From contig JAUXFI010000083.1 of assembly GCA_030620125.1 (NCBI GenBank), positions 1 through 8,027 on the forward strand: a stretch of DNA of 8,027 nt, given 5' to 3'. This document shows positions 3,730-7,719 of the stretch, in pieces; positions within the stretch are counted from its first letter, which is position 1, and every line of letters begins with the position of its first letter. Both the position numbers and the translations under genes were made by a program. This DNA comes from Anaerolineae bacterium. Lineage in GTDB: Bacteria; Chloroflexota; Anaerolineae; B4-G1. Below the pieces are notes generated by a model that saw only the letters and a program-made list of their open reading frames with translations, was not told the DNA's origin and did no database searches.

Positions 3730-4443
3730 TTGCTCAAAATCGCAGGTATCGTAGGATACAAGAACAGTGGCAAGACTACGCTGACCCTCGCGCTGGCACG
3801 CGAGTTGACCGGCAGGGACCATCAGGTGGCTGTGATCAAGCACACATCCCACTCCCTGGACGTCCCAGGTAAGGATACCGCCATACTGGGAGAATCCGTC
3901 GGCCAAGTGGCTATTATCTCGCCGCAGGAGTCAGGGGTTTTCTGGAAGAAGCCGCTGAGCCTGGAGGACATCATCCCCTACCTGGAGGCGGACATCATCC
4001 TCGTCGAGGGTTTCAAGACAGAGCAGACGTTTCCCAAAATCGTGTGCTTGCGGGGAGAGCCGGATGATCGGGACCTTTTCGACGGCCTGGCTATGTGTGC
4101 CGTCGGGCCGGTTGACTACGTGGAGAGAGCGGATGTCCCCCTCCTCAGCCGGGACGAAGTGGGCAAAATCGCCGACATGGTGGAGGAGAAGGCTTTCAAG
4201 TTGCCCAGCCTCGACTGTGGCGGCTGTGGGCACGAGCGGTGCTACGATCTGGCCCGCGAGATCGTCGCCGGAACCGGCAGCGTTGGGGAGTGTATCTCCC
4301 TGCAACCGGCCACGGAGGTCAGGATAGACGGGCAGCCGATGCCTATGAACTCGTTCATCTCCGGCATAGTGAGAAGCACCATCTTGGGGCTCCTGTCGCC
4401 GCTCAAGGGCTTTAAGAAAGGGGAGATTGAGATTAGCATCTGA
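3730..4443 (+). CDS. MobB-type P-loop GTPase fused to an RnfB-type [4Fe-4S] domain
   Basis: This is a 237-residue protein. Residues 1-157 are MobB-like: a Walker A GYKNSGKTT (9-17), the MobB-type HTSHSLDVPGKDT segment (38-50) and a Walker B strand DIILVEGFK (88-96). MobB binds GTP and assists MobA in attaching GMP to molybdopterin. Residues 161-188 are a separate Cys motif, LDCGGCGHERCYDLA with Cys163, Cys166, Cys171 and later Cys188. This is the pattern of the small [4Fe-4S] domain of RnfB and of the CO dehydrogenase/acetyl-CoA synthase corrinoid subunit. The tail (209-237, FISGIVRSTILGLLSPLKGFKKGEIEISI in outline) is a conserved ending of such fusions. No moa or moe gene or molybdoenzyme is visible, so I suspect an NTP-driven metallocofactor handling role rather than ordinary MGD synthesis. 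The TTG start is supported by GGAGG. Its TGA overlaps the ATG of the scaffold gene by one base. Confidence 0.87.
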   Translation: MLKIAGIVGYKNSGKTTLTLALARELTGRDHQVAVIKHTSHSLDVPGKDTAILGESVGQVAIISPQESGVFWKKPLSLEDIIPYLEADIILVEGFKTEQTFPKIVCLRGEPDDRDLFDGLAMCAVGPVDYVERADVPLLSRDEVGKIADMVEEKAFKLPSLDCGGCGHERCYDLAREIVAGTGSVGECISLQPATEVRIDGQPMPMNSFISGIVRSTILGLLSPLKGFKKGEIEISI

Positions 4444-4892
4444 TGGAAAATCGGGAAGAGACGACGGACTTTGACCGTATGGTAGCTGATCTGCAGAGGC
4501 AGATTGATGAACAGGAACGGGCGCTCTACTCGGTCGAGGTTGTCGCGGAGGTACACAATCCCAGGAACGTGGGTCGTATGGAAGGGGCGGATGCACAGGC
4601 AGTCGTGCGCGGTTGGTGCGGCGACACGATGGAGTTTTACCTGCGGCTGGACGGTGAGCGGATCACAGAGGCCACTTTTGTGACCGATGGTTGTGCACCG
4701 ACGGTGGCCTGTGGGAGCAGGCTCACCACGATGGTGCGGGGAGTTTCGCTGGGGGAGGCGGGCGAGATCACGCCAGAGGGTCTGATCGCTGCCCTGGATG
4801 GCCTGCCCGAGGAGAACGTCCATTGCGCCGAATTGGCGGTGAACACGCTACGGGAGGCGATTGCCAACCGGCCCGCGGGGGGCGAAGCATGA
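4443..4892 (+). CDS. IscU/NifU N-terminal-type Fe-S cluster scaffold protein
   Basis: This 149-residue protein carries an IscU/NifU-N domain over about residues 32-141. All the ligand residues are present: Cys59 and Asp61 in GWCGDTM, Cys84 in DGCAPTVAC, and the His127-Cys128 pair before AELAVNTLREAI. These match Cys37, Asp39, Cys63, His105 and Cys106 of E. coli IscU, so it should be able to build [2Fe-2S]/[4Fe-4S] clusters with a cysteine desulfurase. Unlike IscU it has about 30 extra N-terminal residues (DFDRMVADLQRQIDEQERAL), predicted to be helical or coiled coil. There is no C-terminal NifU domain, and the HscA-recognised LPPVK motif is only LPEEN here. The gene overlaps the MobB-FeS gene by one base (TGATG) and the next gene by four (ATGA), so all three are translationally coupled. 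A NifS-type partner starts at 7868. Confidence 0.92.
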   Translation: MENREETTDFDRMVADLQRQIDEQERALYSVEVVAEVHNPRNVGRMEGADAQAVVRGWCGDTMEFYLRLDGERITEATFVTDGCAPTVACGSRLTTMVRGVSLGEAGEITPEGLIAALDGLPEENVHCAELAVNTLREAIANRPAGGEA

Positions 4893-5332
4893 GACAAAGG
4901 GATCGCGTGGGGGGCGTAGCTGCGCGGGCCGGCAATCTGGTCGAGCAGGGCTACCACTGAGCCGAGGCCATGTTGCTCGCCGTGGGCGAGCACGTGCTGG
5001 GCGACCTGGGGCCGCAGTGCGCGCGGATGGCGACCGGCCTCGCGGGCGGGTTGGGAGATACTCAACAGGAGATGTGCGGGGCGCTGAGCGGCGGCGTGCT
5101 TATCATCGGCGGGCTGCTTGGCCGGACGAGGTTGGACGAGGATGACCGTCCGGCCTTTGCCCTCGCCACCCGCTACCGGGCGCGCTTCCTGGCAGAACTG
5201 GGCGACACTCAATGCGCCCGGCTGCGTGAGTTGGTCTACGCGCCAGGGGGTTTGGGCTCCTGCGCGCTGCTGGTCGAGCGAGCGGCGACGATTCTCCTAG
5301 AGTTGCTCGCGGAGGCCGAACGGGAGGTTTGA
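4889..5332 (+). CDS. C_GCAxxG_C_C family redox protein, candidate selenoprotein (in-frame UGA at codon 24)
   Basis: Read through one TGA (4958-4960), this frame gives 147 residues. Upstream it encodes RVGGVAARAGNLVEQGYH, and downstream AEAMLLAVGEHVLG. The stop therefore replaces the family's first conserved Cys in the usual GYxCAEA motif. The other family Cys are present: Cys44 (PQCARMATGLAGGLG), Cys63 (MCGALSGG), Cys109 (DTQCARL) and Cys125 (GSCALLVERAA). The ATG at 4889 overlaps the scaffold stop (ATGA) and follows a G-rich ribosome-binding stretch at 4877-4882. A hairpin resembling a bacterial SECIS follows the TGA, so I favour selenocysteine insertion. Starting at ATG 4970 would give a 120-residue protein lacking the first Cys and most of the first helix, with no good ribosome site. 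A nonsense mutation cannot be excluded. From memory, this family does have members annotated as selenoproteins. The family is predicted to be redox-active or cluster-binding; no reaction is known. Confidence 0.82.
4969..4996 (+). promoter_or_regulatory. Bacterial SECIS-like hairpin directly after the in-frame UGA
   Basis: TGCTCGCC (4974-4981) pairs with GGCGAGCA (4985-4992), leaving the loop GTG (4982-4984). Below it a single unpaired T (4973) bulges out, and CATG (4969-4972) pairs with CGTG (4993-4996) with one wobble. The loop G lies 22 bases after the UGA, inside the spacing usual for bacterial SECIS elements. The bulged U below the upper stem and the G-U in the loop are the two features SelB reads in the E. 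coli fdhF element. The upper stem is longer here than in fdhF. GC-rich DNA pairs easily by chance, so this is strong but not conclusive. Confidence 0.6.
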
Positions 5333-5817
5333 TGGGAGCAACTGGTTACCTGGGCCGCTTGCGGGAATGTGTGGGACACGATCTATTGCTGGTCCCCGCT
5401 GCAGCGGCCTGCATCCGCGACGAGGAAGGTCGCATCCTGATCCTGCGACGCAGTGACGGAGACAATCTGTGGGGTTTCCCTGGCGGGGGGATGGAACTTT
5501 GCGAACGGGCTGCCGAGACGGTGGTGCGCGAGGTGCGCGAGGAGATTGGGCTGGAGGTCGAGCCAGTGGCGTTGATCGGTGTCTATTCCAATCCAGAGCA
5601 CGTCATTACCTATCCCAACGGCGATCAGGTGCAGCCGGTGATCATCTTTTTCGAGTGCCGGGTCGTGGGCGGCGAATTCCGGCCGGACCAGGAAGAGATC
5701 CTGGAAGGGCGCTATGTTGGCCCTGAGGATGAGTTGCCGCCCATGCTCCCTTGTTGCCTCGCCAAGGCCCGCGACGCTTTTGTGTTTCCTTTGCATGGCC
5801 AGGCGTTCTTTCGTTAG
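5332..5817 (+). CDS. NUDIX hydrolase
   Basis: This 161-residue protein has a complete Nudix box: Gly52, Glu58, then REVREEIGL (66-74), fitting GX5EX7REUXEEXGU exactly. Nudix enzymes cleave nucleoside diphosphates linked to another group, using Mg2+ bound by the box glutamates. The preceding ACIRDEEGRILILRRSDGDNLWGFPGGG stretch is the normal strand arrangement of small mutator/ADP-ribose-type members, but the substrate cannot be read from the sequence. The chosen start is ATG 5332, which overlaps the upstream TGA by one base (TGATG) with GGGAGG (5322-5327) before it. The in-frame TTG at 5329 is too close to that site. Unlike its neighbours it has no visible metal-cluster motif. It may be a housekeeping gene captured in the operon or may clean up damaged nucleotide cofactors alongside the DUF89 protein. 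Confidence 0.93.
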   Translation: MGATGYLGRLRECVGHDLLLVPAAAACIRDEEGRILILRRSDGDNLWGFPGGGMELCERAAETVVREVREEIGLEVEPVALIGVYSNPEHVITYPNGDQVQPVIIFFECRVVGGEFRPDQEEILEGRYVGPEDELPPMLPCCLAKARDAFVFPLHGQAFFR

Positions 5818-6281: not shown

Positions 6282-7247
6282 ATGCGGCGGCGGCAGTTCA
6301 TAGGCTGGATGGTTGCAGGAGTGGCGAATCTGCTGGTCGTGGGGTGTAAGCCACGGGTGGAACAAACGGTCTCTGTTACTTCGACGTCCCCTCCCGCACC
6401 GACCCACCCGCCAACACCCACGGTCACACCGACGGCAGTGCCGACGCCTACTTCCGCGCCAGAGCCGACCCCGACAGAGGAGGTCAAGGTTGTGACTTTT
6501 ACGATTGCCTACGATAACAACGCCTACGATCCGGCACTGCGCACTGCCTGGGGCTTTTCCTGCCTGGTGGAGACCGGGGATGCAACGGTGCTCTTCGACA
6601 CCGGCGGCGATAGCCCCACGCTGTTGGACAATATGACAAAGCTGGGCATTGATCCGCAGGCGATTGACGTTGTCGTGCTCTCCCACATCCACGGCGATCA
6701 CACCGGCGGGCTAACGGGATTGCTGGACACGGGCGTTCAGCCGACGGTCTACGTGCCGGCCGCGTTTCCCGCCTCGTTCAAGAACAGCGTGCGCACCCGC
6801 ACCGATCTGGTAGAAGTGACCGGGCCGGTGGAGATCCTGCCCGGCGTCCACACTACCGGCGAGGTGGGTTCGGGTATCATCGAGCAGGCGCTGGCAGTGG
6901 AGACCGGGGATGGTTTGGTCGTCGTCACCGGCTGCGCTCACCCTGGCGTTGTGGAGATGGTGCGCCGCGCGGTAGGGGCGTGGTCGCCACGCCCTCACCC
7001 GCGCCCCTACCTCGTGCTGGGCGGCTTTCACCTGGGCGGCGCGAGCAAGCGTCAGGTCGAGCGCATCATCGCCGATTTCCGCGACCTGGGCGTGCAAAAA
7101 GTAGCGCCGTGCCACTGCACAGGCGACCAGGCGATAGGGATTTTCGCCGAGGAATATGGGGAGGACTTTATCCGAGTCGGTGTGGGATGCGTGATTACTA
7201 TTCCGGACAGTTTTGCTCGTAGTAACGACTTTAGTCGTTCAAAGTGA
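6282..7247 (+). CDS. Exported metallo-beta-lactamase-fold hydrolase (COG1237-like), Tat-type lipoprotein
   Basis: This is a 321-residue protein. The N-terminus MRRRQFIGWMVAGVANLLVVGC combines a twin-arginine-like RRQFIG with a lipobox LVVGC, predicting export and lipid attachment at Cys22. A Pro/Thr-rich spacer (33-66) follows, common in Chloroflexota lipoproteins. The catalytic domain (about 68-308) has HIHGDHTGG (135-143; His135, His137, Asp139, His140), TGCAHPGVVEMV (216-227), GGFHLGG (247-253) and PCHCTG (276-281). These are signatures of the COG1237 branch, which includes enzymes annotated as dihydropterin ribofuranosylaminobenzene phosphate synthases. Most members are cytoplasmic, so the surface-anchored form is less usual. 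The ribosome-binding site GGAAGGTGA (6267-6275) overlaps the ferredoxin stop. The last 11 or so residues (FARSNDFSRSK) are encoded by a palindromic repeat, so the native C-terminus has probably been replaced. The substrate is unknown. Confidence 0.9.
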   Translation: MRRRQFIGWMVAGVANLLVVGCKPRVEQTVSVTSTSPPAPTHPPTPTVTPTAVPTPTSAPEPTPTEEVKVVTFTIAYDNNAYDPALRTAWGFSCLVETGDATVLFDTGGDSPTLLDNMTKLGIDPQAIDVVVLSHIHGDHTGGLTGLLDTGVQPTVYVPAAFPASFKNSVRTRTDLVEVTGPVEILPGVHTTGEVGSGIIEQALAVETGDGLVVVTGCAHPGVVEMVRRAVGAWSPRPHPRPYLVLGGFHLGGASKRQVERIIADFRDLGVQKVAPCHCTGDQAIGIFAEEYGEDFIRVGVGCVITIPDSFARSNDFSRSK

Positions 7248-7277
7248 GGCCGGAGCGACTAGAGTCGCCACTACGAG
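7216..7277. repeat. Composite palindromic repeat (MITE/REP-like) overlapping a gene end
   Basis: CTCGTAGT (7216-7223) is the inverted match of ACTACGAG (7270-7277). Between these ends lie two smaller palindromes: AACGACTTTAGTCGTT (7224-7239) and GCGACTAGAGTCGC (7255-7268). The nested structure looks like a small non-autonomous mobile repeat of a type I recall from Chloroflexota genomes. It supplies the final codons and stop of the preceding gene and ends just before the next gene's ribosome-binding site at 7282. There is no transposase. Confidence 0.75.
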
Positions 7278-7293
7278 ACACAGGAGGGATGGA

Positions 7294-7719
7294 GTGAAAC
7301 TCACAGTGCAACACGTGGACGGCTCGCGCTTCCTGGCGACGGTAGAACTCCCCCCCGCCTCGGGGGGGCCGGGAGGGGTGGGCGGACACGCCGTGGTCGT
7401 GGACGCCGCGCCGGAGGATGGGGGCGCTGGCACCGCGTTGAGCGCACCGCAGTTGTTTGCGGCGGCAGTGGGCGCTTGCATGCTAGAGTTTGTGGCGAAC
7501 TCTTGCCGATTGCGAGGCATTCAGTTCGAGCGATTGAGCCTAGAGTTGGAATGCGAGGAATTGGAGCGTCCCCGTCGCGTCGGCGCGTTGGAGGCGACGA
7601 TCCACATTGAGCCGGAGCCGCCTGAGGACGTGAAACGCAGGCTGGTCGGAGTCGCAAAGCACGCTACCCTGGTCAACACGCTCGCACGCCCGCCGGAGGT
7701 TGCTGTCCGGTTCGCCTAG
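7294..7719 (+). CDS. OsmC/Ohr-family protein lacking the usual second Cys
   Basis: This 141-residue protein has the OsmC core: LSAPQLFAAAVGACMLEFV (49-67) containing Cys62 on the central helix, a LELECEELERPRRVGALEATIHIE strand pair, and the C-terminal AKHATLVNTLARPPEVAVRF. In active OsmC/Ohr peroxidases a second Cys comes in a CPVxxTL-like motif. Here the matching position is KHATLVNTL, with Ala124 where Cys is expected. A different Cys, Cys71, lies nine residues after Cys62. Classical peroxide reduction is therefore doubtful; sulfur or persulfide handling is possible but is inference. The GTG start at 7294 is chosen from AGGAGGG (7282-7288). An insertion-like low-complexity loop PPASGGPGGVGG (20-31) is encoded by a run of 7 C and a run of 7 G forming a perfect hairpin at 7350-7368. 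The cytoplasmic location follows from the absence of a signal. Confidence 0.87.
   Translation: MKLTVQHVDGSRFLATVELPPASGGPGGVGGHAVVVDAAPEDGGAGTALSAPQLFAAAVGACMLEFVANSCRLRGIQFERLSLELECEELERPRRVGALEATIHIEPEPPEDVKRRLVGVAKHATLVNTLARPPEVAVRFA

What the first reader, a model, noticed from the sequence alone, without database searches (positions are those of the whole stretch)
4889..5332. In-frame UGA exactly at the first conserved Cys of a C_GCAxxG_C_C protein: probable selenoprotein
Seen: the frame is open for 23 codons before and 123 codons after TGA 4958-4960, it starts in a 4-base ATGA overlap with the scaffold gene, and it reads GYH-UGA-AEAMLLAVGE, where the family has GYxCAEA. All the other conserved Cys remain. 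Known: Sec commonly replaces a redox-active Cys, and I recall from memory that some family members are annotated as selenoproteins. Inference: Sec24 is the reactive residue of a redox protein tied to a Fe-S assembly operon. Ordinary gene calling would start at ATG 4970 and lose this residue.
Basis: partly seen in the sequence, partly recalled or inferred. Interest (0 to 1): 0.85.

Follow-up and report, generated by a model that had tools for sequence, protein, structure and literature searches.

The report
Selenoprotein missed by ordinary gene calling
A small bacterial protein gene carries an in-frame UGA that most likely encodes selenocysteine rather than stop; relatives keep either UGA with a selenocysteine-insertion hairpin or an ordinary cysteine codon without it, so this is a well-supported new member of a known selenoprotein family.

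The parts
4889..5332 (+). C_GCAxxG_C_C selenoprotein gene, 147 aa with Sec24, stop TGA 5330-5332
4958..4960 (+). UGA read as selenocysteine (residue 24, first invariant Cys of the family)
4974..4992 (+). bacterial SECIS-type hairpin: 8-bp stem, GUG loop at 4982-4984, 21 nt between the UGA and the loop
4970..4972 (+). ATG at which ordinary gene calling starts the truncated 120-aa product
4443..4892 (+). NifU_N/IscU-like scaffold gene, ATGA overlap with the selenoprotein gene
3730..4443 (+). MobB domain plus FeS (PF04060) domain gene
5332..5817 (+). NUDIX hydrolase gene, its ATG overlapping the selenoprotein stop (TGATG)

Best explanation
The gene encodes a 147-aa selenoprotein of the C_GCAxxG_C_C family, most likely in a Chloroflexota bacterium (inferred from its relatives). 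The ribosome starts at ATG 4889, which overlaps the stop of the NifU-like gene. At UGA 4958 the hairpin 4974-4992 recruits SelB with Sec-tRNA, selenocysteine goes in at position 24, and translation ends at TGA 5330. Shown here by comparison: codon identity, hairpin covariation, and sel machinery in relatives. Inferred: Sec24, Cys63, Cys109 and Cys125 form one thiol/selenol or iron-centre site in a fold like split-Soret cytochrome c, acting in electron transfer or thiol redox chemistry. One Cys clade near the window lacks all four sel genes, which suggests Sec-to-Cys replacement there.
For: In-frame TGA at the family's first Cys. 42 of 52 relatives TGA, 10 Cys, no other codon; the only stop inside the tblastn alignments is this TGA. 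Hairpin: 95.8% of cells paired over 42 distinct rows, 11 cells changed on both sides, 0 of 500 shuffles as high on covariation score; 52.5% paired and no excess in the 10 Cys genes. Strict hairpin in 42 of 43 TGA genes, 0 of 10 Cys genes, 4 of 19,716 background TGAs; 7.67 of 8 positions paired against 5.67 in synonymous recodings. G001 (78% identical relative) has tRNA-Sec with anticodon TCA, SelB, SelA, and SelD with its own in-frame TGA. Over 41 TGA genomes: selA 40, selD 38, selB 37, tRNA-Sec 34. Tree: the Sec/Cys label needs 4 changes, shuffled mean 9.3. The truncated protein falls below the TIGR01909 cut-off (44.3 against 47.4), the full one passes (54.6).
Against: The window's own genome is not held, so its sel genes are unseen. 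One database homologue (P0121, 1 of 120) has Arg at position 24. Of 28 comparison genomes without a family match at the cut-offs used, 24 have SelB over cut-off and 22 tRNA-Sec, so machinery alone discriminates weakly. 5 of 10 Cys genomes hold three or four of the sel genes and 2 hold two, so Cys is not explained by loss of machinery alone; the 3 with none are one clade, hence one event. L109, the most divergent TGA gene, lacks the fixed-position hairpin. Shuffles do not keep relatedness. For the fold: helical models often reach high Z by chance arrangement (tool note), and Foldseek did not list the match. No protein-level evidence; the biochemical role is unknown.
Confidence: 0.95

Rival explanations
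1. UGA 4958 is a true stop: a 23-aa leader peptide is followed by reinitiation at ATG 4970, giving the 120-aa protein of the databases.
For: ORF calling and 119 of 120 listed homologues start downstream of codon 24.
Against: Codon 24 is TGA or Cys in all 52 relatives read; TAA and TAG do not occur there. Residues 12-23 are conserved in frame. The hairpin covaries where the codon is TGA and not where it is Cys.
Confidence: 0.03
2. Sequencing error or pseudogene with a TGC/TGT to TGA change.
For: A single-base change would make TGA from TGC or TGT.
Against: TGA at the same codon in 42 relatives with the rest of the frame intact.
Confidence: 0.005
3. UGA is reassigned genome-wide (for example to Trp or Gly) rather than recoded by a local signal.
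For: The frame is open through TGA.
Against: Other window genes end at TGA (1835, 4441, 4890, 6273, 7245) and the gene itself ends at TGA 5330. The partner residue in relatives is Cys, not Trp or Gly. tRNA-Sec and SelB occur in relatives.
Confidence: 0.005

Closest known systems
C-GCAxxG-C-C family (seleno)protein, TIGR01909 / PF09719 (forms 1 and 2 in table passages of the review PMC13188914; also listed in PMC9312934)
   Same: Score above the curated cut-offs; four invariant Cys/Sec; a listed prokaryotic selenoprotein family with one Sec.
   Different: The passages I saw give no Sec position (motif column is a dash), and the words Chloroflexi/Chloroflex had no hit in these two texts. Here Sec is at the first Cys and is the majority state in the Chloroflexota set read.
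Split-Soret cytochrome c, Desulfovibrio desulfuricans ATCC 27774 (PDB 1h21)
   Different: The window protein has no CxxCH haem motif and carries Sec; the sequence match alone is weak (E 0.3).
HUGP/GUXX-star fusion selenoprotein (NF045501)
   Same: Weak match over residues 12-100; 41 of 43 aligned members match at E up to 0.001.
   Different: 29.2 bits against a cut-off of 325; the window protein is 147 aa against a profile of 236.

Membership tests
C_GCAxxG_C_C (PF09719, TIGR01909) | Score over curated cut-off | tested here: met
   66.4 against 27 bits; 54.6 against 47.4; the truncated form scores 44.3, below the TIGR01909 cut-off
C_GCAxxG_C_C (PF09719, TIGR01909) | Four conserved Cys (first may be Sec) | tested here: met
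   positions 24, 63, 109, 125 invariant in 43 rows with TGA read as Cys
Bacterial selenoprotein | In-frame UGA at a position held by Cys in relatives | tested here: met
   42 TGA, 10 TGC/TGT of 52 relatives
Bacterial selenoprotein | bSECIS: loop 3-9 nt with G in the first two, stem 4-16 bp, 16-37 nt from UGA, MFE at most -7.5 (model quoted in PMC13188914, passage seen) | tested here: met
   loop GUG, 7-8 bp, 21 nt, -24.4 kcal/mol for a 42-nt piece; covariation
Bacterial selenoprotein | selA, selB, selC, selD in the same genome | not testable with these tools
   own genome not held; present in relatives
Bacterial selenoprotein | Selenium found in the protein | not testable with these tools
   needs mass spectrometry or 75Se
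Split-Soret cytochrome c | Shared fold | tested here: met
Split-Soret cytochrome c | CxxCH haem-binding motifs | tested here: not met
   none in the translation
HUGP/GUXX-star fusion selenoprotein | Score over curated cut-off 325 | tested here: not met
   29.2 bits
DVU_1555 family C-GCAxxG-C-C protein | Score over curated cut-off 103 | tested here: not met
   50.7 bits

The most novel reading that the evidence does not exclude
Sec24 is a natural selenolate ligand of an iron or iron-sulfur centre. The fold best matches split-Soret cytochrome c, whose structure entry is titled 'A novel iron centre...'; four invariant Cys/Sec residues sit at or beside helix N-termini, as cluster ligands often do (recalled); and the window gene lies among Fe-S-related genes. 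I recall no natural protein with a genetically encoded Sec ligand on an Fe-S cluster. Two paper searches listed one and four papers, none of whose titles reports such a ligand; none was opened, so this is a thin check.
Probability: 0.12. Interest if true: 0.85.

Novelty: new member of a known kind. Interest (0 to 1): 0.4.

Why it matters
Most of this clade's close homologues listed here are recorded as proteins of about 120 aa that lack the first conserved residue; the hairpin lets such genes be re-annotated. TGA and Cys copies in one group, with and without sel genes, are a natural experiment on Sec/Cys exchange. The fold link to an iron-centre protein makes the role of a selenoprotein family of unknown function directly testable.

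Tried and rejected
True stop with reinitiation, sequencing error, pseudogene and genome-wide UGA reassignment were considered and rejected (see rivals). Rfam gave no match in the window at gathering scores; as far as I recall it holds no bacterial SECIS family. A loose test of the bSECIS model was not discriminating (43 of 43 TGA, but also 4 of 10 Cys genes), so a strict fixed-position test was used. Its background of 19,716 TGAs comes from all fetched loci, some of which overlap; the four that passed did not look like genes. Foldseek against the PDB gave no match at E up to 0.001; the split-Soret match came from the second look. An attempt to read the 1h21 residue that matches Sec24 failed because the alignment did not extend that far, so only Cys63 and, weakly, Cys125 could be matched by sequence. 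Neighbours of other members gave no shared theme: GHMP kinase and M24 peptidase in L091 and L102, Yip1, Fe-ADH, TPP enzyme, C69 peptidase, MFS, phosphomannose isomerase, and two proteins without a match.

Rows dropped: in the class search 77 matches were listed; codon 24 was read in the 50 strongest plus G464, and the 26 weaker ones (three with a stop inside: G447 and G376 TGA, G573 TAG) were not read. One search also counts one TAG or TAA beside the TGA in four of the read matches (G364, G393, G484, G544); their ORFs after codon 24 end at 137-141 aa, so I take these as the genes' own ends. In one search, 23 loci from the phylum and order searches and L001 were given: 5 have a stop at codon 24 (L001, L048, L050, L005, L014), 15 Cys, 3 unresolved (L024, L028, L029); other loci were not read. 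L005 and L014 are not among the 52. L068 (contig edge) was left out of the tree and the protein alignment, which holds 43 of 53 rows.

Full report
What is there. The frame 4889-5332 has a single internal stop, TGA 4958-4960, 23 codons after the start, and ends at TGA 5330-5332. The ATG overlaps the stop of a NifU-like gene (ATGA), and the stop overlaps the start of a NUDIX gene (TGATG). Read with the TGA as a residue, the protein passes the cut-offs of PF09719 (66.4 bits) and TIGR01909 (54.6 bits), both named C_GCAxxG_C_C; NCBI describes the second as '(seleno)protein'. The truncated 120-aa product from ATG 4970 falls below the TIGR01909 cut-off (44.3 against 47.4).

Relatives. A protein search found 448 homologues; of the 120 listed, 119 begin downstream of residue 24 (101 at residue 28) and one, P0121, has Arg at 24. 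DNA of relatives shows why. The best match, L001 (a Chloroflexi genome, 78% identity), has TGA at the same codon. Searches of 48 genomes of its order and 396 of its class gave 14 and 72 genomes with matches at their cut-offs. I read codon 24 in 52 relatives: the 50 strongest of the 77 class matches, the one in G464, and L050 from the order search. It is TGA in 42, TGC in 6 and TGT in 4, and no other stop lies inside the tblastn alignments. The 26 weaker class matches were not read. One search counts a further TAG or TAA in four of the read matches, which I take as the genes' own ends (ORFs of 137-141 aa). Residues 12-23, before the UGA, are 50% identical to the window against 59% for residues 25-36, so the stretch upstream of the UGA is conserved as the same protein.

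The SECIS. The window folds a hairpin just after the UGA (z -2.69). In an ungapped alignment of the 43 TGA genes (42 distinct rows counted), the stem of columns 17-24 with 28-35 is paired in 95.8% of cells, with 11 cells changed on both sides, 14 further pair types, and 0 of 500 shuffles reaching the covariation score; slid controls pair at 28-51%. The shuffles do not keep relatedness, but the slid controls do. In the 10 Cys genes the same columns pair at 52.5% with no excess over shuffles. With at least 7 of 8 pairs and a GU loop required, 42 of 43 TGA genes pass (the divergent L109, loop CUC, does not), 0 of 10 Cys genes, and 4 of 19,716 other TGA triplets in the fetched DNA (overlapping loci included). 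TGA genes hold 7.67 pairs of 8 against 5.67 after synonymous recoding, Cys genes 4.20 against 4.18. Loop size, G in the loop, spacing (21 nt) and energy meet the published bacterial model, which I saw as a passage of PMC13188914; a loose form of that model also accepts 4 of 10 Cys genes.

Machinery. G001 has tRNA-Sec with anticodon TCA, SelB, SelA, and a SelD that itself has one in-frame TGA. Over the 41 genomes with TGA copies: selA 40, selD 38, selB 37, tRNA-Sec 34; G417 has two of the four and the other 40 at least three. Of 10 genomes with Cys copies, G341, G344 and G345 have none of the four, G452 and G520 two, G562 three, and G387, G501, G401 and G489 all four. None against any gives Fisher p 0.006, but the three are one clade, so this is one event. 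Twenty-eight class or order genomes without a match were run as a comparison for selB and tRNA-Sec: 24 and 22 have them, so the machinery is common in the class and by itself is weak evidence. The window's own genome is not held.

Evolution. On a tree of 52 rows (window included, L068 left out) with the Sec/Cys column masked, the label needs 4 changes (shuffled mean 9.3, 0 of 500 as low). The window groups with L001 and L048 (99/97). The Cys clade L049, L051, L052, from the three genomes without sel genes, lies in the same larger group, whose support is modest (80/85). Sec is the majority state; the direction of change depends on rooting, which is by midpoint only.

Context. Window genes include a NUBPL-type NTPase fragment, an ARMT1-like protein, a CGGC protein, a DUF5320 protein, two Nitro_FeMo-Co proteins, MobB-FeS, NifU-like, NUDIX, ferredoxin, metallo-beta-lactamase fold and OsmC. 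At least one other of these families lies in the fetched stretch in 8 of 20 extended loci, a NifU-like gene in 3 of 20, and none in L001 or in 20 shorter, more distant loci. The Fe-S link is thus local to the nearest relatives, and not to all of them.

Known or new. PF09719 is in published lists of prokaryotic selenoprotein families (table passages seen in PMC9312934 and, as forms 1 and 2, in PMC13188914), found by searching C_GCAxxG_C_C and C-GCAxxG-C-C. The words Chloroflexi/Chloroflex had no hit in those two texts. This is a new member of a known kind, with very strong comparative support.

Noticed in passing
window 7213-7719: OsmC gene matches NCBIfam 'OsmC-related (seleno)protein' only weakly (23.9 bits against cut-off 95) and its listed ORF has no internal TGA; no evidence of Sec.
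   Followed up: no
   Followed up: partly
G001:C42:1303-2238 and 43 other genomes: 44 of the 45 genomes with a SelD match have a match with one in-frame TGA, so SelD looks like a selenoprotein across this class; this includes G452, where selB and tRNA-Sec were not found.
   Followed up: no
L092, L098, L104, L105: One Cys clade keeps Cys although three of its four genomes have all four sel genes, so Cys there is not forced by loss of machinery.
   Followed up: partly
L091:1577-4503, L102:1894-4842: In two distant Sec members the gene lies between a galactokinase-like GHMP kinase and an M24 peptidase; ORFs of similar size flank the Cys member L098, not scanned.
   Followed up: partly
L001:86-1096: The relative with the highest identity has a pyridine nucleotide-disulphide oxidoreductase directly upstream, a possible reductant partner.
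   Followed up: no
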